IMG/VR virus record: IMGVR_UViG_3300044970_002308
Span: 16,669-80,668 of that record
Reading direction: 5' to 3' (one strand)
Length of the DNA: 64,000 nt
Source: a virus
The notes under the pieces were generated by a model. That model did not search any database. It had not been told where the DNA came from and worked only from the letters and a program-made list of their open reading frames with translations. The position numbers were made by a program, and so were the translations under genes. How positions within the stretch are numbered: position 1 is the first letter of the stretch; every line of letters begins with the position of its first letter. Shown here piece after piece: positions 54,465 through 64,000 of the stretch.

Positions 54465-55040
54465 TTAACTCTGCTTTTGGACTTTGGCTAGTAATCTTCG
54501 AGATTTATTAATAGCTCGTTGCACCATTAATCTAGCCACGGTTTCGACAAATGGTAATTTTCTCTTCGAGCTTTCTTCTTTCAGCCAACCAAGAATAGTA
54601 TCCATGTTTTGCTCGCACCAATCTGGGCCACTGGCGTTCATTTGTAAAGCGTGGCGCCTACAACTACAATTTGGAGTAGAGTGGATACCTAATGCGCTAA
54701 TCATACCTGATAAGATAGTGCCCGGGCCGTTAGGATCAGACTCTAGCGTTCTAGGAAATAAAGACTGTAAATACGCTTGAGCATTTTCTCCAATTTTTTC
54801 TCTGAGAGACCCTTCCAAAGCAGCAATAGATAGATCGGTTACTTCGTGAAAATCTGCCGGAGTAGCCAATGAGATTGGCGATGGCACCTTTAGAATAGTA
54901 GCATATATATTTTTTGCTTTAGGATTAATATGGTAAGTTACATCTAACTCATTCAATACGATAGGTCCCGGTGTTATAGTTTTTCCTGTCTGATCAGCAT
55001 AGGGAGGTTGTGTCAGTACGATAGGGTTATTTAGGATCAT
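54465..55040 (-). CDS. Conserved phage protein with CxCxxH motif
   Basis: Length 191 residues, GGAGTACCAAGCA before the ATG. The centre reads 'GIHSTPNCSCRRHALQMNAS' then 'GPDWCEQNMDTILGWLKEES', with three cysteines and a His in a compact arrangement that could bind zinc. The C-terminal 40 residues are basic and helical ('LMVQRAINKSRRLL'). Versions of the WCxxNxDTIxxWL segment occur in many phage proteins without known function. The position directly before the large terminase suggests a packaging or DNA-binding role. This is inference only. Confidence 0.65.
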   Translation of the reverse strand: MILNNPIVLTQPPYADQTGKTITPGPIVLNELDVTYHINPKAKNIYATILKVPSPISLATPADFHEVTDLSIAALEGSLREKIGENAQAYLQSLFPRTLESDPNGPGTILSGMISALGIHSTPNCSCRRHALQMNASGPDWCEQNMDTILGWLKEESSKRKLPFVETVARLMVQRAINKSRRLLAKVQKQS

Positions 55041-55521
55041 TGCTTGGTACTCCTTTGTTTTTAACTACTTCTATATAATGTATCTTTTTTAATATATGCT
55101 CAGCCATCTTTCCAGCGTTATCAGCGTCTCCACAAAAATATACTATAATATTATGGTTCAATTGCAACTCTAAAATGTTCTTTAATAAAAACGCTGGACT
55201 AATCTTAATTTTATCCCACATTCTTCTTGGCACGGTGGACCCAATAGGATAAACCAATAAATCTTTTAGATCAAACTCTAGTAATAAAAAAGCGTATTTT
55301 ATATTACTCATTCTCTCGATAACATCTTTAAATCTACTTTCTACAATATTATTAGCAAATTCACTAGAGCTCTTTTTACGCTCTATGCATAATATATTCT
55401 CTAATCCTTCTATACTATAATCACCAGTATCTAATTTTCTATTAGCTATTGTATAGTTAGGAAACTCCCATGGTTGTTGTTCTCTGGTGTCTACTACTAT
55501 TGTAAAATCGTATTTATTCAT
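55027..55521 (-). CDS. ERCC4-type nuclease
   Basis: Length 164 residues; ATGA overlap with the HNH gene. The ERCC4/XPF nuclease motif is complete: 'IVVDTREQQPWEFPN' (D, R, E), 'KLDTGDYSIEGLENILCIER' (GD and ERK), 'SRFKDVIERMSN' and 'AFLLLEFDL'. Such domains cut branched or structured DNA near single-strand junctions. Phage versions are commonly linked to recombination or concatemer resolution. It is beside HNH and terminase genes, so it may help clear branches before packaging. Confidence 0.85.
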   Translation of the reverse strand: MNKYDFTIVVDTREQQPWEFPNYTIANRKLDTGDYSIEGLENILCIERKKSSSEFANNIVESRFKDVIERMSNIKYAFLLLEFDLKDLLVYPIGSTVPRRMWDKIKISPAFLLKNILELQLNHNIIVYFCGDADNAGKMAEHILKKIHYIEVVKNKGVPSNDPK

Positions 55522-55793
55522 AGTAATCGTTTATTGGCTAATATTTTAAGGAAAACAGAAGCGTATATTTCTTCCATACCCCTGATCATTTTGTGATGAT
55601 TGTAGCATAATGTTATACCGTTATTAATATCGAATCTTAACCCAGGATTATGGGCCCAAATCTGAATGTGGTGAGCGTTAAGCTTATTCTTTTTCGTACA
55701 CCCTGGCCACTGGCATGTAAAATTATCTCTCTGATATACCTTTTTTCTCCACTGTACATAGGCTGGGTCTTTAAAGTCTCTAGGCATTGGCAT
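55518..55793 (-). CDS. HNH endonuclease
   Basis: Length 91 residues. HNH motif order: C27 and C32 in 'FTCQWPGCTKKNKLNAHHIQ', HH at 41-42, then 'DINNGITLCYNHHK' with C and HH. This is the C-x4-C / HH / N / HxxC-type ring. A second in-frame ATG lies two codons in. Small HNH proteins near terminase genes are required for packaging in several HK97-like phages; others are homing nucleases. Position next to terL and the ERCC4 nuclease favours packaging. It overlaps the upstream dehydratase gene by 14 bases. Confidence 0.85.
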   Translation of the reverse strand: MPMPRDFKDPAYVQWRKKVYQRDNFTCQWPGCTKKNKLNAHHIQIWAHNPGLRFDINNGITLCYNHHKMIRGMEEIYASVFLKILANKRLL

Positions 55794-56778
55794 ATGCCTT
55801 AATGTCGCTATCTACCATATCTTGAACCAAATCATCAAAAGTTATGGATGGCTCCCACCCCAATTCTTTTTTGGCCTTTTGATTTCTACCGCATAGATAT
55901 TCTACCTCTGCTGGTCTGTATAAGTCGGGATCTATCTCTACATATTCTTTATAGTTTAATCCGGCATAGCTAAACGATTTTTGCAGAAAATCTAAGATAC
56001 TCCACGTTTTACCCGTACATATTACATAGTCCTGTGGAGCATCTGTCTGTAGCATAAGATACATGGCGTATACATAATCTTTAGCGTGGCCCCAATCTCT
56101 CTTTGCGTTTAGATTACCAAGCTTTAGGGTGGTATTAGTTGTGCGATTAATAACTTGGCCAATATATTTTGTTATTTTACGCGTAACAAAATTTTCGCCC
56201 CTACGAGGACTCTCGTGATTAAACAGTATACCGCTGCAACCAAAAATACCGTATGCCTCGCGATAAATCTGTACTAAACGATGACTTGCTAACTTAGCTA
56301 CTCCATAAGGACTTTGAGGCAATAGAGAGGTGTCTTCATCTTGATATTTTTCTTGAGTATTTGAATCAACATTATAACTACGACCAAACATTTCGCTAGT
56401 GCTAGCCTGATAAAATTTTGTAGCAGAAGAGCAGTGGCGAATAGCCTCTAGTATATTTACTACTCCGATAGTATCTATTTGAATAGTCGCTGTGGGTTGT
56501 TTGAAACTGGTGCCAACATGACTTTGAGCAGCTAGGTTGTAGAATTCGTCTGGTTGGTAAGAATCTATGATCTTCATACAGTTTGCGGGATCTGTTAAAT
56601 CAAATTCTTCTAGCTTAAATAGTTCGTGATTTATAAGATGAGATACTCTATCTAAATTATTAGTACTATTTCTACGATGTAGGCCAACAACCCTATATCC
56701 CTTATCTATTAATAGGTCGGCCAAATAAGAACCATCCTGACCAGTAATACCGGATACTAGCGCTAATTTATTTGTCAT
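55780..56778 (-). CDS. gmd: GDP-mannose 4,6-dehydratase
   Basis: Length 332 residues, TAATAGGAGCAAATA before the ATG. Extended SDR motifs are intact: 'GITGQDGSYLADLL' (residues 10-23), 'DEFYNLAAQSHVGTSF', the active-site 'STSEMFG', 'YGVAK' (catalytic Tyr and Lys), and 'SPRRGENFVTRKIT' (GDP-sugar binding). It converts GDP-D-mannose to GDP-4-keto-6-deoxy-D-mannose, the precursor of GDP-fucose, rhamnose and related sugars. No downstream fucose or rhamnose synthase is in the window. It could feed the glycan genes at 16-18 kb or a host pathway. Such genes are known in cyanophages and large marine phages. Confidence 0.92.
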   Translation of the reverse strand: MTNKLALVSGITGQDGSYLADLLIDKGYRVVGLHRRNSTNNLDRVSHLINHELFKLEEFDLTDPANCMKIIDSYQPDEFYNLAAQSHVGTSFKQPTATIQIDTIGVVNILEAIRHCSSATKFYQASTSEMFGRSYNVDSNTQEKYQDEDTSLLPQSPYGVAKLASHRLVQIYREAYGIFGCSGILFNHESPRRGENFVTRKITKYIGQVINRTTNTTLKLGNLNAKRDWGHAKDYVYAMYLMLQTDAPQDYVICTGKTWSILDFLQKSFSYAGLNYKEYVEIDPDLYRPAEVEYLCGRNQKAKKELGWEPSITFDDLVQDMVDSDIKAYANA

Positions 56779-58496: not shown

Positions 58497-58727
58497 ATGG
58501 CTAATTATAAAAAGTGGACAAATTCCGAAACAGATTTTATCAAAGATAACCATAATGTGCTATGTGATGAGGCTTTGGCCGCTAAGTTAAGCCAAATGAC
58601 CGGCCAAAATGTTAGTACCGCTATGGTGCGTCGTCAAAGACGAAAGCTTGCTCTGAAAAAGAGTAGAGGTCGTCCAAGTAAGAATAAGACCAATTTGGGC
58701 GAAACTAGTGAATCAGTCAATATCTGA
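58497..58727 (+). CDS. Small DNA-binding protein with AT-hook
   Basis: Length 76 residues, AGAAGGAATAAAAAAT before the ATG. Residues 4-52 form a SANT/HTH-like three-helix unit ('KKWTNSETDFIKDNHNVLCD', 'ALAAKLSQMTGQNVSTAMVR'). The basic end 'RRKLALKKSRGRPSKN' has an AT-hook core RGRP. It is one of only two plus-strand genes, and is expressed from the symmetric promoter facing the sigma operon. A regulator that binds its own promoter region would fit. It is closed by an intrinsic terminator. Confidence 0.8.
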   Translation: MANYKKWTNSETDFIKDNHNVLCDEALAAKLSQMTGQNVSTAMVRRQRRKLALKKSRGRPSKNKTNLGETSESVNI

Positions 58728-58824: not shown

Positions 58825-59136
58825 ATGATTAAGTCTATTTTTATGGTTATGTTGATGATTATGTTGAGCGTGGTTTGTGATAGATCTTATGCTAATGATT
58901 GGGTAAGCTATAATAGTTTTCCACAACCAGCGCAGCCCTTATTGTTCCCGGTTAATACCGTTCAAACACAATACGTTAATACGGTACAAACGGTTTTTGT
59001 TCCTGTACAGACTATAGTACCGGTTCCTGTTCCGGTAGTATATTATCCCATTGTGAGATACGTGGAAGTTATACCTAATTATACTTCTATACGACTTTAT
59101 AGCTATAGAAGATGTTGTATTAATTTAAACTATTGA
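58825..59136 (+). CDS. Secreted Val/Pro/Gln-rich small protein
   Basis: Length 103 residues, ATATAAGGAAATAATTAA before the ATG. Residues 1-24 are a signal peptide (MIKSIFMVMLMIMLSVVCDR, cleavage likely after SYA). The mature part is low-complexity: 'TVQTQYVNTVQTVFVPVQTI' then VPVPVPVVYYPIVRYVEV. It ends with a 'YRRCCINLNY' tail with adjacent cysteines. The style recalls secreted planctomycete proteins. No lysis or holin pattern is seen. It may be exported to the host envelope; its role is unknown. Its gene converges on the Cys-rich gene at 59157 with 20 bases between. Confidence 0.65.
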   Translation: MIKSIFMVMLMIMLSVVCDRSYANDWVSYNSFPQPAQPLLFPVNTVQTQYVNTVQTVFVPVQTIVPVPVPVVYYPIVRYVEVIPNYTSIRLYSYRRCCINLNY

Positions 59137-59156: not shown

Positions 59157-59585
59157 TCAAACGATACAAGATCCAACGGGTCCTATTTCGCTACTTATCA
59201 ATGTTAAATTAGGAATATATAGACACGGAACAACACCAGGATAAGCATATGCTCCTGTGGTCCCGTCCAAAGCGCTGTAATAACAGCATGTTTCAACATC
59301 ATAATTAATATAACAAAAATCATTGCACGACCCCTGACCACCAGTCGCTAAAATATCTCTAAATACAGAAAGAGCTATGCCATTAGAGGATGGAGGGCAT
59401 TGGCTACATGTATCGGTAGTGCCTGTTATACATCCGTCTTCTCCCTCATAGACACAACAACGAATCGCAGGGGTAGGCACACAAGGAGAATCATCACATC
59501 CCTGCTGGCATTCCGCCAAGGTATTATACGGGCCGCTTATAGAGTTTAATGGGGGATTATTTACTGAAAATTGTTCGCATGGCAT
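59157..59585 (-). CDS. Cys-rich cap-family protein A
   Basis: Length 142 residues. Residues 1-30 are the constant cap 'MPCEQFSVNNPPLNSISGPY' plus NTLAECQQGC. The remainder is unique, with about 16 cysteines ('CPTPAIRCCVYEGEDGC', 'TTDTCSQCPPSSNG', 'ETCCYYSALDGTTG'). There is no signal peptide, so the disulphides would form after lysis or in the virion. The cap is shared by four other genes in this region. The product could be a head or neck decoration protein. Confidence 0.75.
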   Translation of the reverse strand: MPCEQFSVNNPPLNSISGPYNTLAECQQGCDDSPCVPTPAIRCCVYEGEDGCITGTTDTCSQCPPSSNGIALSVFRDILATGGQGSCNDFCYINYDVETCCYYSALDGTTGAYAYPGVVPCLYIPNLTLISSEIGPVGSCIV

Positions 59586-59628
59586 AATATAACCTTTATA
59601 CTATTTGCTCTGAAAATAGCAATAAATC

Positions 59629-60123
59629 TCAAACCTCATCAGGAGGACAAATAATAATATTGTTTTCGTTTCTTACGCACGCAACACCGGGCTTCCAGAC
59701 GTTCCCCGGATAGGGCTCCCTCACCAGGCAATTGCCTCCTTCAAGCGGGAATTCTCCCGGCGGTGGCGTGGGCAGGCAGCCGCAACTGTTCGGGTCTGGT
59801 GCTGCGTCAAGCCAGCGATACAACCTTGTCCTATTACAATGTTTTTTCCCCGCGTATGGCCCGTCTGGTAGGGGTTCTCCATCCCAGGTCGGCACCCAGC
59901 CTTCTGACGCATCGCACTCCTCGTCGGCGCCTATGTACTTCCATTCATCACACCAAGCTTCAAACTTTGTGCAGTGATTCTCATTAGGCATATCTTGGCA
60001 GCCACCCCACGCATCACAGCAGGCTCCGCTTGAACATCCCGCTTGACACTCCTCCAAAGTATTATACGGACCGCTTTTAGGGTTGAGTGGTGGATTATTT
60101 ACTGAAAATTGTTCGCATGGCAT
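59629..60123 (-). CDS. Cys-rich cap-family protein B, GC-rich variable part
   Basis: Length 164 residues. Cap: 'MPCEQFSVNNPPLNPKSGPY' plus NTLEECQAGC. The variable part is Cys/Trp/Pro-rich ('ACCDAWGGCQDMPNENHC', 'WCDEWKYIGADEECDASEG', 'CGCLPTPPPGEFPLEGGNC'). By hand count, bases 59701-59820 are 62-67% GC, against about 25% at 62221-62280, so the variable part has foreign composition while the cap DNA matches its siblings. This points to recombination replacing the 3' part. Function unknown. Confidence 0.75.
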   Translation of the reverse strand: MPCEQFSVNNPPLNPKSGPYNTLEECQAGCSSGACCDAWGGCQDMPNENHCTKFEAWCDEWKYIGADEECDASEGWVPTWDGEPLPDGPYAGKKHCNRTRLYRWLDAAPDPNSCGCLPTPPPGEFPLEGGNCLVREPYPGNVWKPGVACVRNENNIIICPPDEV

Positions 60124-60145
60124 GATTAATGTCTCTTATAAATTA

Positions 60146-60153
60146 AATACACT
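60146..60153 (-). promoter_or_regulatory. Candidate late promoter motif before protein B gene
   Basis: Minus strand TTTAGTGTATTTAATTTATA in the 42-base gap, 23 bases upstream of the ATG at 60123. It is a one-base variant of the GGTGTATTT core. Confidence 0.35.
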
Positions 60154-60165
60154 AAAATTGACGTA

Positions 60166-60834
60166 TCAGCAAGAACCAATCTGTTCGTTACACCAAATAC
60201 CTCCACCGCCAAAAGCGGCGCAACATGTTAAATTGCCCGGACTAACCGAAATACAATGACCTCCCCAACAAACTGAAACAGAAGCTCCGTCAGGTCCAGC
60301 AATAGTCCCCACAGCAGAAGCGCCGCATCCAGCAAATGACCAACTACCAGTAGTTGCTCCGCCGTTATGGCTGCGTCCATCAAAAACACGAATACCATTT
60401 GAGTCCACACACTGAACTTCTACCGAACTATAACCAGCTGAGTTAGCCGCGCCTCCAGTACGATAACACGTAACGGGATAAGCCGGACAAACTGTGGGGC
60501 AATCGCCGCAGTTTGTAAGATCTCCCTGGTATGTACCTCCTCTAAAATCACAATCACACTCCTGAAGTTGCTCACACGGCTCATTAGGAGGGGATAGATT
60601 ACAGCAGGCGCCGAATACTGGCGGACATTCCTCTTGACATCTTGAGCCATCTCCGCGATAGTCTCCACCGGCACCTGCGCATTCTTCAGCGGTTACCTCG
60701 ATGCAAATTGCGGGACAGGTTTGGCAACAGGCTCCGCTCACCACACACCCTTGCTCGCAATCTGATAGAGTATTATATGGGCCGCTTATTGCGTTTAACG
60801 GGGGATTATTTACTGGAAACTGTTGACAAGCCAT
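60166..60834 (-). CDS. Cys-rich cap-family protein C
   Basis: Length 222 residues. Cap: 'MACQQFPVNNPPLNAISGPY' plus NTLSDCEQGC. Residues 32-115 contain two 'GACC...C...GGxYxGxGxxC' units ('GACCQTCPAICIEVTAEEC', 'GAGGDYRGDGSRC', 'FGACCNLSPPNEPCEQL', 'FRGGTYQGDLTNCGDC'). This is a motif I know chiefly from Planctomycetota extracellular proteins. The C-terminal part is beta-like ('GYSSVEVQCVDSNGIRVFDG'). It is 11 bases from the coiled-coil/Cys gene upstream, the same junction as at 63868-63880. Confidence 0.75.
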   Translation of the reverse strand: MACQQFPVNNPPLNAISGPYNTLSDCEQGCVVSGACCQTCPAICIEVTAEECAGAGGDYRGDGSRCQEECPPVFGACCNLSPPNEPCEQLQECDCDFRGGTYQGDLTNCGDCPTVCPAYPVTCYRTGGAANSAGYSSVEVQCVDSNGIRVFDGRSHNGGATTGSWSFAGCGASAVGTIAGPDGASVSVCWGGHCISVSPGNLTCCAAFGGGGIWCNEQIGSC

Positions 60835-60845
60835 GTTTTAACGCC

Positions 60846-62210
60846 TTATGCTACACAATAGTATTGTTTACATTCGCAAGTGTCAGGATCTTGCTCCTGT
60901 CCATTAGGGCAAGAATTCTTACAAACCCATTCACAAGCATTCTCGTCCCATCTATATTTCGAAGACCCAAACCAACCCAGCTCACCAGAATCTGGTTCTG
61001 GATCCGTGCATACGACCTTACCTACACAATCCGCCGTTTGACAAGGTTTAACTATTTTATTCGGATCTGAGCAAAAACACTCGCATACTCCTGCGCTAAC
61101 ACCAGGAACTAGTTCCATACCGGGGCAACACGGATCAACACAAGTATTCCATTCGGTACCGGATCTTATACCAGGAAGCTGAGGTAAATAGGACGATAGC
61201 CATCCGCTTGGTTTACTACACAACACTTTATTAGAAGGACATTCAGTGCATTCACAAGTTTCTTCATTTAACATGGACTCTTCCATGCAGTTTACTTTTT
61301 CAACAATGCTTAATGAGGCCAATAAATCTAGTAATAAATCCGCGGCCCTGGCTCCTATCTCGCTCCATCTTCCTCCTATTTCATCCGCGACAGCGACCAT
61401 ATTATTTTGGTTACCTCCTGCAATGGTCTCCCTGCCTTTCTTGATAATACTATTGATGCTATCTTCATCTGCTTTAAGAACTGATGTTAAATTTTCTAAT
61501 TCTGTTATTTGATTTAAAATCGTATTTTCGCCGATAGTATGATTTCCTATAGATATGGAAGGCCCATGCATAGACTGTAAACTGGTATTCAAGGCCTTTT
61601 GTTTAGCTAATAAAAATTTATATCCATCTTCGCTAAATTGAAGACCTAGTTCTAGTGAGGCCAGGTGTTGCTTAAGCGGAATTAATTGAGCTCTAGTGCT
61701 ATTATAGTTTGATAATAATGTTGCAATTTGTGGAGTAATAACATTAGGAACAATTGGCGAGCCATTAGGACTCCATTGAACAAGCCCGCCTGAATATTGA
61801 TCAATTAAAATTCTATACTGAGAAGCCAGTTTGGTATTTGTTTGTATGTTTATCATCGTTTGTTTAATATCTTGAAACAAATACTTTGCTTGCTGAGTAG
61901 CTGTTCTGATTTTATCTGCAATATCTTGTAATTCTGTTATAATCCCATATGTTTTACTTTTAAGTGACGATAAAATTCCACTCGCATATGTTCTAATAAC
62001 TACAGCGTTAGCCAGTGGTGTTCTTAATAATGTTAATTGATAAGATAATAGTTGTTTAGCAAAAAACTTTCGACCAGCATTCCTAAATATACCAAATATT
62101 GATCCAACGGGAAATAAAACATCTACGTAGCAATCGCAAGGAGGAGGAATCGTAGGAGGGTACAGTAATATACCTAAGTCTCTTTTGGCTCCAGTACACG
62201 GTTCACTCAT
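60846..62210 (-). CDS. Coiled-coil protein with CXCXC-type Cys-rich tail
   Basis: Length 454 residues. Residues 50-300 are helical and coiled-coil ('LLSYQLTLLRTPLANAVVIR', 'QYRILIDQYSGGLVQWSPNG', 'NQITELENLTSVLKADEDSI'). Residues 310-454 are Cys-rich: 'NEETCECTECPSNKVLCSKP', 'CECFCSDPNKIVKPCQTADC', 'CEWVCKNSCPNGQEQDPDTC' and ECKQYYC. The CPNGxxxDxxTCECxxxYC pattern resembles silk-like CXCXC repeats. A near-identical C-terminus lies at the right edge, encoded by a paralogue. It is probably a virion fibre shaft or whisker with a disulphide-bonded tip. The family is not recognised. Confidence 0.7.
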   Translation of the reverse strand: MSEPCTGAKRDLGILLYPPTIPPPCDCYVDVLFPVGSIFGIFRNAGRKFFAKQLLSYQLTLLRTPLANAVVIRTYASGILSSLKSKTYGIITELQDIADKIRTATQQAKYLFQDIKQTMINIQTNTKLASQYRILIDQYSGGLVQWSPNGSPIVPNVITPQIATLLSNYNSTRAQLIPLKQHLASLELGLQFSEDGYKFLLAKQKALNTSLQSMHGPSISIGNHTIGENTILNQITELENLTSVLKADEDSINSIIKKGRETIAGGNQNNMVAVADEIGGRWSEIGARAADLLLDLLASLSIVEKVNCMEESMLNEETCECTECPSNKVLCSKPSGWLSSYLPQLPGIRSGTEWNTCVDPCCPGMELVPGVSAGVCECFCSDPNKIVKPCQTADCVGKVVCTDPEPDSGELGWFGSSKYRWDENACEWVCKNSCPNGQEQDPDTCECKQYYCVA

Positions 62211-62212
62211 AA

Positions 62213-62716
62213 TTACTCACCATAATAATTAGCGGGACCTATAATATTTAGTAATTCTTTATCTGGATCATATAGATTTTCATATAATAACATTACCATC
62301 TTTGAATTTGTCATATGTTCCATCTCATCTTCTATTATAGCGTTGATTCTTTGGTCAAATTCTGTCATATAATTAGATATTTGATTTGGGTCTAAAGACA
62401 CATTAGAATTTGTAAAAATGGTATTGGTAGCATTAGTAACAGCATTATTGATGTGCCTATTTATAAAAGATGATAAGTTATACGCGTTTCCCGCATCAGG
62501 AACAGACCCATTCGCAAAAATTGGATTATATATCTGATTTTCAGTATTGCCTATACTTAATGATATAAAATTCAAAAAATCTAATGAATTATGAGTAGCT
62601 TTAGTGTTTTTATTGGTTTTAGCCGATTTATCATTAGATATGATTTGTTCTTGATATTTAACATTAGCTTTATTAGATGGTTTGTTTGAATTATTAAAAA
62701 TATTGAAAATGCTCAT
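62213..62716 (-). CDS. Hypothetical protein, 167 residues
   Basis: It starts MSIFNIFNNSNKPSNKANVK, has an Asn/Lys-rich disordered first 50 residues, then 'LDFLNFISLSIGNTENQI', 'SSFINRHINNAVTNATNTIF' and a helical acidic end ('EFDQRINAIIEDEMEHMTNS'). No cysteines. The stop lies 2 bases before the coiled-coil/Cys gene, so the two are probably co-translated. A sigma-70-like promoter lies about 60 bases upstream. Function unknown. Confidence 0.6.
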   Translation of the reverse strand: MSIFNIFNNSNKPSNKANVKYQEQIISNDKSAKTNKNTKATHNSLDFLNFISLSIGNTENQIYNPIFANGSVPDAGNAYNLSSFINRHINNAVTNATNTIFTNSNVSLDPNQISNYMTEFDQRINAIIEDEMEHMTNSKMVMLLYENLYDPDKELLNIIGPANYYGE

Positions 62717-62772
62717 AAGATTTAATTTACCTAAAAAACATGATTGAGTTGTCGGGGCTACGCCAATAACAT

Positions 62773-62802
62773 ATTGTAATACACGAAACGAGATTCGTTC
62801 AA
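62773..62802 (-). promoter_or_regulatory. Sigma-70-like promoter before 167-residue gene
   Basis: Minus strand TTGAAC (62802-62797), 18 bases, TACAAT (62778-62773). It lies in the 135-base gap, the largest in this block after the capsid terminator gap, and 57 bases upstream of the ATG at 62716. Confidence 0.4.
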
Positions 62803-62851
62803 GTCTTAATTTTTATATACTCAAACAAAAGATCGTGGTGTTGGGTTCGAG

Positions 62852-63298
62852 CTAGACACAAATTGCTCCGCCGTTCACAGGGTGGTCGAGACTATTTGTA
62901 GCCGCTACTAATAGCTGTTGGTATGCGGCACAATCGCCTAGATTAGAACCTGGGACGCAGCAAGTAGCATAATCGGCGGATGCCTCGCCGGTGCATCGAA
63001 TGAGTTTGTAGGCTTGTATTGTTCCTGAGTCATCCCACGGCGGAGGCCCCGTCTCCTCTAATAGCTCTTCGGCAAATCCGTTGGGACAACCGCAAGGTAG
63101 CGGCTGGGGTGAGAGGGTTTGGTATCTCTGCCACTCTCCATTTATCTTAACGCAAGCAACTTGGCCGTCAACAAACGCCTTGCATTCTTGACCCGATGGA
63201 CATCCGGAGCACCCCTGATTACACTCCTCTAGACTGTTGTATGGTCCGCTTATAGCGTTTAACGGAGGATTATTGAGTGAAAATTGTTGACACGGCAT
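62852..63298 (-). CDS. Cys-rich cap-family protein D, GC-rich variable part
   Basis: Length 148 residues. Cap: 'MPCQQFSLNNPPLNAISGPY' plus NSLEECNQGC. The variable part has 'GCPSGQECKAFVDGQVAC', 'QPLPCGCPNGFAEELLEETG', 'YATCCVPGSNLGDCAAYQQL'. The DNA of the variable part is GC-rich (57% by count over 63061-63120), unlike the cap. No family recognised. Confidence 0.75.
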   Translation of the reverse strand: MPCQQFSLNNPPLNAISGPYNSLEECNQGCSGCPSGQECKAFVDGQVACVKINGEWQRYQTLSPQPLPCGCPNGFAEELLEETGPPPWDDSGTIQAYKLIRCTGEASADYATCCVPGSNLGDCAAYQQLLVAATNSLDHPVNGGAICV

Positions 63299-63340
63299 AT
63301 TTAGATTTTTTTACTATTTTAAAAGATAGTAATTCTATTT

Positions 63341-63868
63341 TTATGTAATAACTTCTACTGTCGGTTTATCGGATATATAAGGAGCAATAGCAGATTCGCA
63401 TTGAGCATCTAAAGGACTACCTATAATTGTATTTTCGATTACTTCATTTATGGATATTGATCCTGTTTTCGGAGCTATGTTTTGCCAGACCCAATTCTTT
63501 CTGTATCTAATAATACTACTACTACTATTGTACGCACCAGACCAAACTAAAACTCCCACGGCTCCAAACATTCCATTTGCATTACAAAAATGCGTATTAC
63601 CATGAGCCAATTGCACATTCCAGCCATTACAAATATTCAAAATAGCTGCTCTATATCCACCAAGAGTTGAATAACAATTAGTATGTCCTACGCACGGAGG
63701 ATAGGGCCAAGTTGTGTTTATTTGAAGCCCTCCAATAGAAGCGTTATAATTTTTTATTTCGCTACACTCAATACTATTACACCCCTGCTCGCACTCCTCT
63801 AGACTATTGTATGGTCCGCTTATAGCGTTTAACGGAGGATTATTTAGTGGAAACTGTTGACAAGCCAT
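63341..63868 (-). CDS. Cys-rich cap-family protein E
   Basis: Length 175 residues. Cap: 'MACQQFPLNNPPLNAISGPY' plus NSLEECEQGC. The variable part is AT-rich, less Cys-dense and beta-like: 'YNASIGGLQINTTWPYPPCV', 'GHTNCYSTLGGYRAAILNIC' and 'HFCNANGMFGAVGVLVWSGA'. This could be a lectin-like or C1q-like fold but no signature is certain. It is 11 bases downstream of the paralogue of the coiled-coil/Cys gene, copying the arrangement at 60834-60846. Confidence 0.75.
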   Translation of the reverse strand: MACQQFPLNNPPLNAISGPYNSLEECEQGCNSIECSEIKNYNASIGGLQINTTWPYPPCVGHTNCYSTLGGYRAAILNICNGWNVQLAHGNTHFCNANGMFGAVGVLVWSGAYNSSSSIIRYRKNWVWQNIAPKTGSISINEVIENTIIGSPLDAQCESAIAPYISDKPTVEVIT

Positions 63869-64000
63869 GTTTTAATTCCTTATCCCACACAATAGTATTG
63901 TTTACATTCGCAAGTGTTAGGATCTTGCTCCTGTCCATTAGGGCAAGAATTCTTACAAACCCATTCACAAGCATTCTCGTCCCATCTATATTTCGAAGAC
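63767..64000 (-). repeat. Duplicated gene junction
   Basis: Bases 63767-64000 align with about 60732-60965 at a constant offset of 3,035. Both contain the cap of a Cys-rich gene, an 11-base gap and the 3' end of a coiled-coil/Cys gene. The last 100 bases or so differ at only a few positions. This marks a tandem duplication of a two-gene unit, continuing beyond the window. Confidence 0.85.
63880..64000 (-). CDS. 3' end of second coiled-coil/Cys protein, cut by window edge
   Basis: The frame reads 'SSKYRWDENACEWVCKNSCP' then NGQEQDPNTCECKQYYCVG and a TAA stop at 63880. It differs from the end of the 60846-62210 product at two residues (N for D in QDPNT, G for A at the end). Most of the gene lies beyond the window. 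Confidence 0.85.
   Translation of the reverse strand, partial: SSKYRWDENACEWVCKNSCPNGQEQDPNTCECKQYYCVG

What the first reader, a model, noticed from the sequence alone, without database searches (positions are those of the whole stretch)
59157..64000. Cassette family of Cys-rich proteins with constant cap and swapped C-termini
Five genes begin with almost the same 30 residues (M-x-C-x-QF-x-x-NNPPLN-x-x-SGPYN[TS]L-x-[ED]C-x-x-GC). They then diverge completely. The first 65 or so bases of each gene are conserved at DNA level, while some variable parts have a different base composition (62-67% GC by hand count in 59701-59820, 57% in 63061-63120, against 25% in 62221-62280). This looks like repeated capture of new domains behind a fixed attachment cap, a modular display system. 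The cap would dock to a virion or host partner and the variable part would interact outside. I know of no described system of this exact form; novelty is inference.
Basis: partly seen in the sequence, partly recalled or inferred. Interest (0 to 1): 0.75.

Follow-up and report, generated by a model that had tools for sequence, protein, structure and literature searches.

The report
Plug-in Cys-rich proteins of freshwater phages
A large uncultured tailed phage carries a row of small proteins that all start with the same 30-residue cap and then carry completely different disulfide-type domains; related phages do the same with a different cap, which suggests an interchangeable set of parts shown on the virus particle, although the location on the particle is inferred and not shown.

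Summary
Five minus-strand genes at 59157-63868 share a 30-residue N-terminal cap (19 positions invariant); similarity falls to random level right after it. The cap is under strong purifying selection with mostly saturated synonymous sites, so it is conserved as a peptide, not as a recent DNA repeat. Three of the five genes are the most GC-rich of 44 in the window over their whole length; two are ordinary. This cap occurs only in this virus and one near-identical contig. The format, however, is wider: terminase relatives and other large phages use a second, unrelated N-terminal cap (M-x-Y-[DN]-N-x-GPIYS-x-L-x-GK) before 14 different proteins, in one relative at the same site beside the terminase. 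One such domain recurs (53% identity) on a large scaffold protein of the tail gene cluster in another relative, cut at the cap border. Variable parts almost always hold an even number of cysteines (16 of 17), as self-contained disulfide domains would. Best explanation: a short N-terminal docking peptide that puts exchangeable disulfide-rich domains on the virion, working like the conserved peptides of branched receptor-binding proteins. An injected-protein signal like the T4 capsid targeting sequence is the main rival.

The parts
63341..63868 (-). capped protein, 175 aa (cap + 145-aa variable part, 6 Cys)
   Evidence: ORF and cap alignment; in sister contig G001 the same variable part follows a different cap allele
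62852..63298 (-). capped protein, 148 aa (variable part 10 Cys; GC 0.515, GC3 0.46)
62213..62716 (-). 167-aa protein without cap, GC 0.272, inside the array
   Evidence: no family
60846..62210 (-). 454-aa protein without cap: helical-looking middle, Cys-rich C-terminus; relative of a 930-aa protein at the same locus in L091
60166..60834 (-). capped protein, 222 aa (variable part 24 Cys, two GACC-type repeats)
59629..60123 (-). capped protein, 164 aa (variable part 12 Cys; GC 0.529, GC3 0.50)
59157..59585 (-). capped protein, 142 aa (variable part 12 Cys)
63869..64000 (-). second, slightly diverged copy of the end of the 454-aa gene (frame kept), cut by the contig end; natural or chimeric

Best explanation
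The five proteins are virion-displayed, disulfide-rich accessory domains that share one short N-terminal docking peptide. The cap binds one constant acceptor on the particle (unknown; the neighbouring 454-aa protein or a tail protein are candidates), and the C-terminal domain faces outward, where it contacts the cell surface. The phage gains and swaps C-terminal domains behind the cap at a variable locus beside the terminase. Shown: constant cap, unrelated C-termini, selection on the cap peptide, a second cap family used the same way in related viruses, re-use of one capped domain on a tail-cluster scaffold. Inferred: location on the virion, the acceptor, contact with the host, disulfide formation.
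For: Cap/variable border is abrupt and the cap is kept by purifying selection. No Pfam, PHROG or NCBIfam family for any of the five. A second cap (M-x-Y-[DN]-N-x-GP[IV]YS) is always at the protein start, its GP[IV]YS core within 3-7 residues of the Met, before 14 distinct proteins of 56-351 aa. In terminase relative G009 (84% terminase) three of these lie at the same locus beside the terminase. The variable domain of the 138-aa capped protein of G009 is 53% identical over 120 aa to the C-terminus of a 421-aa protein in the tail gene cluster of L088, the match starting 6 residues after the cap. That carrier (272-aa N-terminus with a GDPH motif, Thr-rich linker) is 75% identical in G047 but there bears another Cys-rich module, itself similar to a different capped protein (41% over 56 aa, E 0.002). 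Cys parity: 16 of 17 Cys-bearing variable parts have an even count (13 of 14, then 3 of 3 found later), against 57% of other ORFs and 28 of 62 Cys-rich ORFs. No signal peptide is apparent by eye in the caps, so virion assembly is the natural way out. The phage is rich in display modules: collagen, fn3, Mtd_N.
Against: No proteomics or structure; AlphaFold models were unusable (pLDDT 30 and 42). No acceptor with a T4 gp10-like domain was found among the structural proteins searched. The array is beside the terminase, not inside the fibre cluster. This cap itself occurs in one virus only. Domain re-use was shown for the second cap, not for the window's own five C-termini. The parity test was devised after seeing the data, apart from the last three proteins.
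Confidence: 0.5

Rival explanations
1. The cap is a packaging signal for proteins carried inside the head and injected, like the capsid targeting sequence (CTS) of T4 internal proteins; the variable parts then act in the new host cell, for example against defences.
For: T4 internal proteins are a highly diverse set sharing only a CTS (PMC3012670). The array is next to terminase, portal and head genes. Five of six cap alleles contain L-x-E near the end (the sixth L-S-D), the form of the T4 head protease site as I recall it; not tested.
Against: The second cap has L-x-G, not L-x-E. Variable parts with 6-24 even-numbered cysteines are poor candidates for threading through a tail tube. One capped domain recurs on a tail-cluster scaffold. 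No head protease family was recognised.
Confidence: 0.2
2. The capped proteins are released at lysis or exported and act on the Cys-rich protein envelope of a planctomycete-type host, the cap being an interaction motif for host wall proteins and not for the virion.
For: Subtilases with a LExR/K..LL N-terminal motif that I know from planctomycete exported proteins lie at the locus in G001, L023, L025, L028, L035 and L173. Cys-rich YTV proteins are reported in planctomycete cell walls (PMC8567305). Phages were inferred to infect lake planctomycetes (PMC9040852).
Against: No signal peptide apparent in the capped proteins; the host is inferred from one motif only; the GDPH-type carrier of the same domains lies in the tail gene cluster.
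Confidence: 0.12
3. Plain gene duplication with fast divergence: five old paralogues whose N-terminus is a functional domain and whose C-termini have merely drifted; no capture of foreign domains.
For: Cap paralogues are old (dS mostly saturated), which leaves time for C-termini to diverge.
Against: No residual similarity between C-termini, lengths 112-192 aa, and GC3 of 0.23 to 0.54 within one array; in relatives a capped domain matches a non-capped carrier from the cap border on.
Confidence: 0.13

Closest known systems
Conserved N-terminal docking peptides of branched receptor-binding proteins (phage K1-5, KP32, KP34, Menlow group; PMC6872550)
   Same: Short peptide at the extreme N-terminus, constant within a phage group, different between groups, before unrelated C-terminal parts; several such genes per genome
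   Different: There the C-terminal part is a large depolymerase or tail spike and the acceptor a T4 gp10-like domain; here it is a small Cys-rich domain without family and no acceptor was found
T4 internal proteins with a capsid targeting sequence (PMC3012670)
   Same: Diverse proteins in one virus that share only an N-terminal targeting peptide
   Different: T4 proteins are packed in the head; here C-termini are Cys-rich, and the second cap lacks the L-x-E form
Modular phage tail fibres and tailspikes with conserved N-terminal anchor and swapped C-terminus
   Same: Fixed attachment part, horizontally exchanged receptor part
   Different: Anchors are usually whole domains, with one or a few genes per genome; here a 16-30 residue peptide serves 4-6 small genes in an array

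Membership tests
RBP with conserved docking peptide (anchor-branch type) | Short constant peptide at the extreme N-terminus, differing between phage groups | tested here: met
   Two unrelated caps, always at the start
RBP with conserved docking peptide (anchor-branch type) | Unrelated C-terminal parts behind the same peptide | tested here: met
RBP with conserved docking peptide (anchor-branch type) | C-terminal part is a beta-helical depolymerase or tail spike | tested here: not met
   112-192 aa Cys-rich parts, no Pfam/PHROG/NCBIfam match
RBP with conserved docking peptide (anchor-branch type) | Acceptor protein with T4 gp10-like docking domain in the same genome | tested here: inconclusive
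   None among the structural proteins searched at sequence level
T4-type internal proteins (CTS) | Cleavage site for the head protease (I/L-x-E) at the end of the signal | tested here: inconclusive
   L-x-E in five of six cap alleles, L-S-D in one, absent from the second cap
T4-type internal proteins (CTS) | Located inside the head and injected | not testable with these tools
   Needs virion proteomics
Known curated domain family for the cap | Match in Pfam, PHROGs or NCBIfam | tested here: not met

The most novel reading that the evidence does not exclude
A general plug-in display system of large freshwater phages: each lineage keeps its own short N-terminal docking peptide and mounts on it a changing set of self-contained disulfide domains. 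In the window virus the cap brings an odd, invariant set of three cysteines (C3, C26, C30) while every variable part has an even number, so one cap cysteine could stay free to bind covalently to the particle or to a Cys-rich host wall.
Probability: 0.2. Interest if true: 0.8.

Novelty: new variant of a known kind. Interest (0 to 1): 0.6.

Why it matters
It would be a compact, natural display kit: a 16-30 residue tag that mounts many unrelated disulfide-stabilised domains on a phage, used by abundant uncultured freshwater viruses that may infect planctomycetes. It gives a testable handle (tag fusion, virion proteomics) on how such phages vary their host contacts, and a search rule (constant N-terminus, even-Cys variable part) to find further caps.

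Tried and rejected
Cap profile in GTDB genomes gave one 14-residue chance-like match in an Oceanospirillales contig. Cap and variable parts against cultured phages and plasmids: nothing. Fifty terminase relatives searched with the cap: none has it. AlphaFold models of the 175-aa protein and of a GPIYS-cap protein were too poor to search by fold, so no fold search was run. A link of the window cap to the GPIYATLSECNANC stretch of the G047 scaffold protein is suggestive but short; not relied on. Subtilase search in plasmids did not identify a host. Cassette exchange by site-specific recombination at the cap DNA was considered and dropped as main mechanism: synonymous sites of most cap pairs are saturated, so there is no conserved DNA target.

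Full report
What the window is. The window is bases 16669-80668 of an 80,668-base IMG/VR virus record, and its right end is the contig end. Terminase, portal, tape-measure-type tail protein, collagen, fn3 and Mtd_N fibre proteins make it a tailed phage. Its terminase has at least 600 relatives in IMG/VR, on contigs up to 244 kb, but only distant matches (about 25% identity) among cultured phages.

Check of the observation. Five minus-strand ORFs share a 30-residue cap with 19 invariant residues. DNA identity is 0.70-0.84 through nucleotide 90 of the genes and 0.26 afterwards. dN is 0.06-0.19; dS exceeds 1.5 or cannot be estimated in 10 of 15 pairs. Composition: the 164-, 148- and 222-aa genes are the three most GC-rich of 44 genes in the window, the first two also in third codon positions (GC3 0.50 and 0.46, mean 0.30); the other two are ordinary. 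The stated refutation test (shift vanishes over whole genes) is thus not met for three genes and met for two.

How widespread is the cap. It was found only in a second contig, G001 (IMGVR_UViG_3300036398_003287, 31,938 bases), 99.9% identical over 7.8 kb. Cultured phages, GTDB genomes and 50 terminase relatives lack it. In G001 the 175-aa gene has the same variable part but a different front: identity is complete from about nucleotide 63 of the gene onward and lost upstream, where the window runs into a roughly 96% copy of the end of the 454-aa gene and G001 into a non-coding stretch and a divergent subtilase gene. The differing bases keep the reading frame of the 454-aa gene copy, so a diverged second copy probably exists in the sample.

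The format is wider than the cap. In relative G009 (238 kb, terminase 84% identical) three ORFs at the same locus beside the terminase start with another constant peptide, M-x-Y-[DN]-N-[NT]-GPIYS-[VI]-L-x-GK, and continue into unrelated, Cys-rich parts. Scans for this peptide gave 14 distinct proteins in several viruses, with the motif at the protein start in every case, including an array of four genes in tandem plus one divergent gene on contigs of 146 and 381 kb whose records have no match to this terminase. In the G041 group two such genes lie at the same kind of locus with GFAT, subtilase and sulfotransferase-like neighbours (gene names from sequence inspection). Other relatives carry different cargo there: GFAT, sugar-nucleotide enzymes, endonuclease-like ORFs.

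Evidence for swapping of whole domains. The variable part of the 138-aa G009 protein is 53% identical over 120 aa to the C-terminus of a 421-aa protein in the tail gene cluster of L088; the match starts 6 residues after the cap and, in L088, right after a Thr-rich linker. The 272-aa N-terminal part of that carrier is 75% identical in G047, where it carries a different Cys-rich module that resembles another capped protein (41% over 56 aa, E 0.002). So the same pool of small Cys-rich domains is mounted on two carriers, a short cap and a large scaffold.

Cysteine parity. In 16 of 17 Cys-bearing variable parts the number of cysteines is even: 13 of 14, and 3 of 3 proteins found later. Other ORFs of these viruses give 57%, Cys-rich ones 28 of 62. 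This fits self-contained disulfide domains. The window cap adds three invariant cysteines, so all five whole proteins have an odd number. The first 14 were counted before the rule was stated, so only the last three are independent.

Mechanism. Most likely the cap is a docking peptide and the variable domain is displayed on the particle; no signal peptide is apparent, and the domains recur on a tail-cluster protein. This is inference: no proteomics, no usable model, no acceptor identified. The 454-aa neighbour belongs to a family of the same locus (30% over 151 aa to a 930-aa protein in L091) and is a candidate acceptor, nothing more. An internal, injected protein set like that of T4 is the main rival.

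Comparison with known systems. Short conserved N-terminal peptides that differ between phage groups and attach variable receptor-binding proteins are described (PMC6872550), and T4 internal proteins share only a targeting sequence (PMC3012670). The window proteins work like these by format; membership fails on the C-terminal part for the first and is undecided for the second. Hence: new variant of a known kind.

Noticed in passing
   Followed up: partly
L009:11030-12274 (G001); also L023, L025, L028, L035, L173: Subtilase genes beside the array locus whose N-termini carry a LExR/K..LL motif typical, from memory, of planctomycete exported proteins; a hint to the host.
   Followed up: partly
window 58825-59136 and 58497-58727 (+): Small protein with signal-like N-terminus and VPVP-type repeats, and an AT-hook-like protein, both on the opposite strand and kept beside the variable locus in most relatives.
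   Followed up: no
window 54465-55040; L021:1193-1795; L091:3330-3929: 191-aa protein family beside the terminase with a C-terminal NC[STA]C...WC pattern; a paralogue lies inside the GPIYS-cap array of G009.
   Followed up: no
L088:20584-21849, L115:17520-19046: Carrier protein with GDPH motif and a long Thr-rich (TDAPTT) linker bearing exchangeable Cys-rich C-termini in the tail gene cluster.
   Followed up: partly
window 55027-56778: ERCC4-type nuclease, HNH nuclease and a GDP-mannose dehydratase-like gene kept together next to the terminase in the relatives viewed.
   Followed up: no
L161:4015-4611, L173:5940-6452: Sulfotransferase-like gene directly after the Cys-free 312/277-aa GPIYS-cap protein in two different viruses; possible functional pair.
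   Followed up: no
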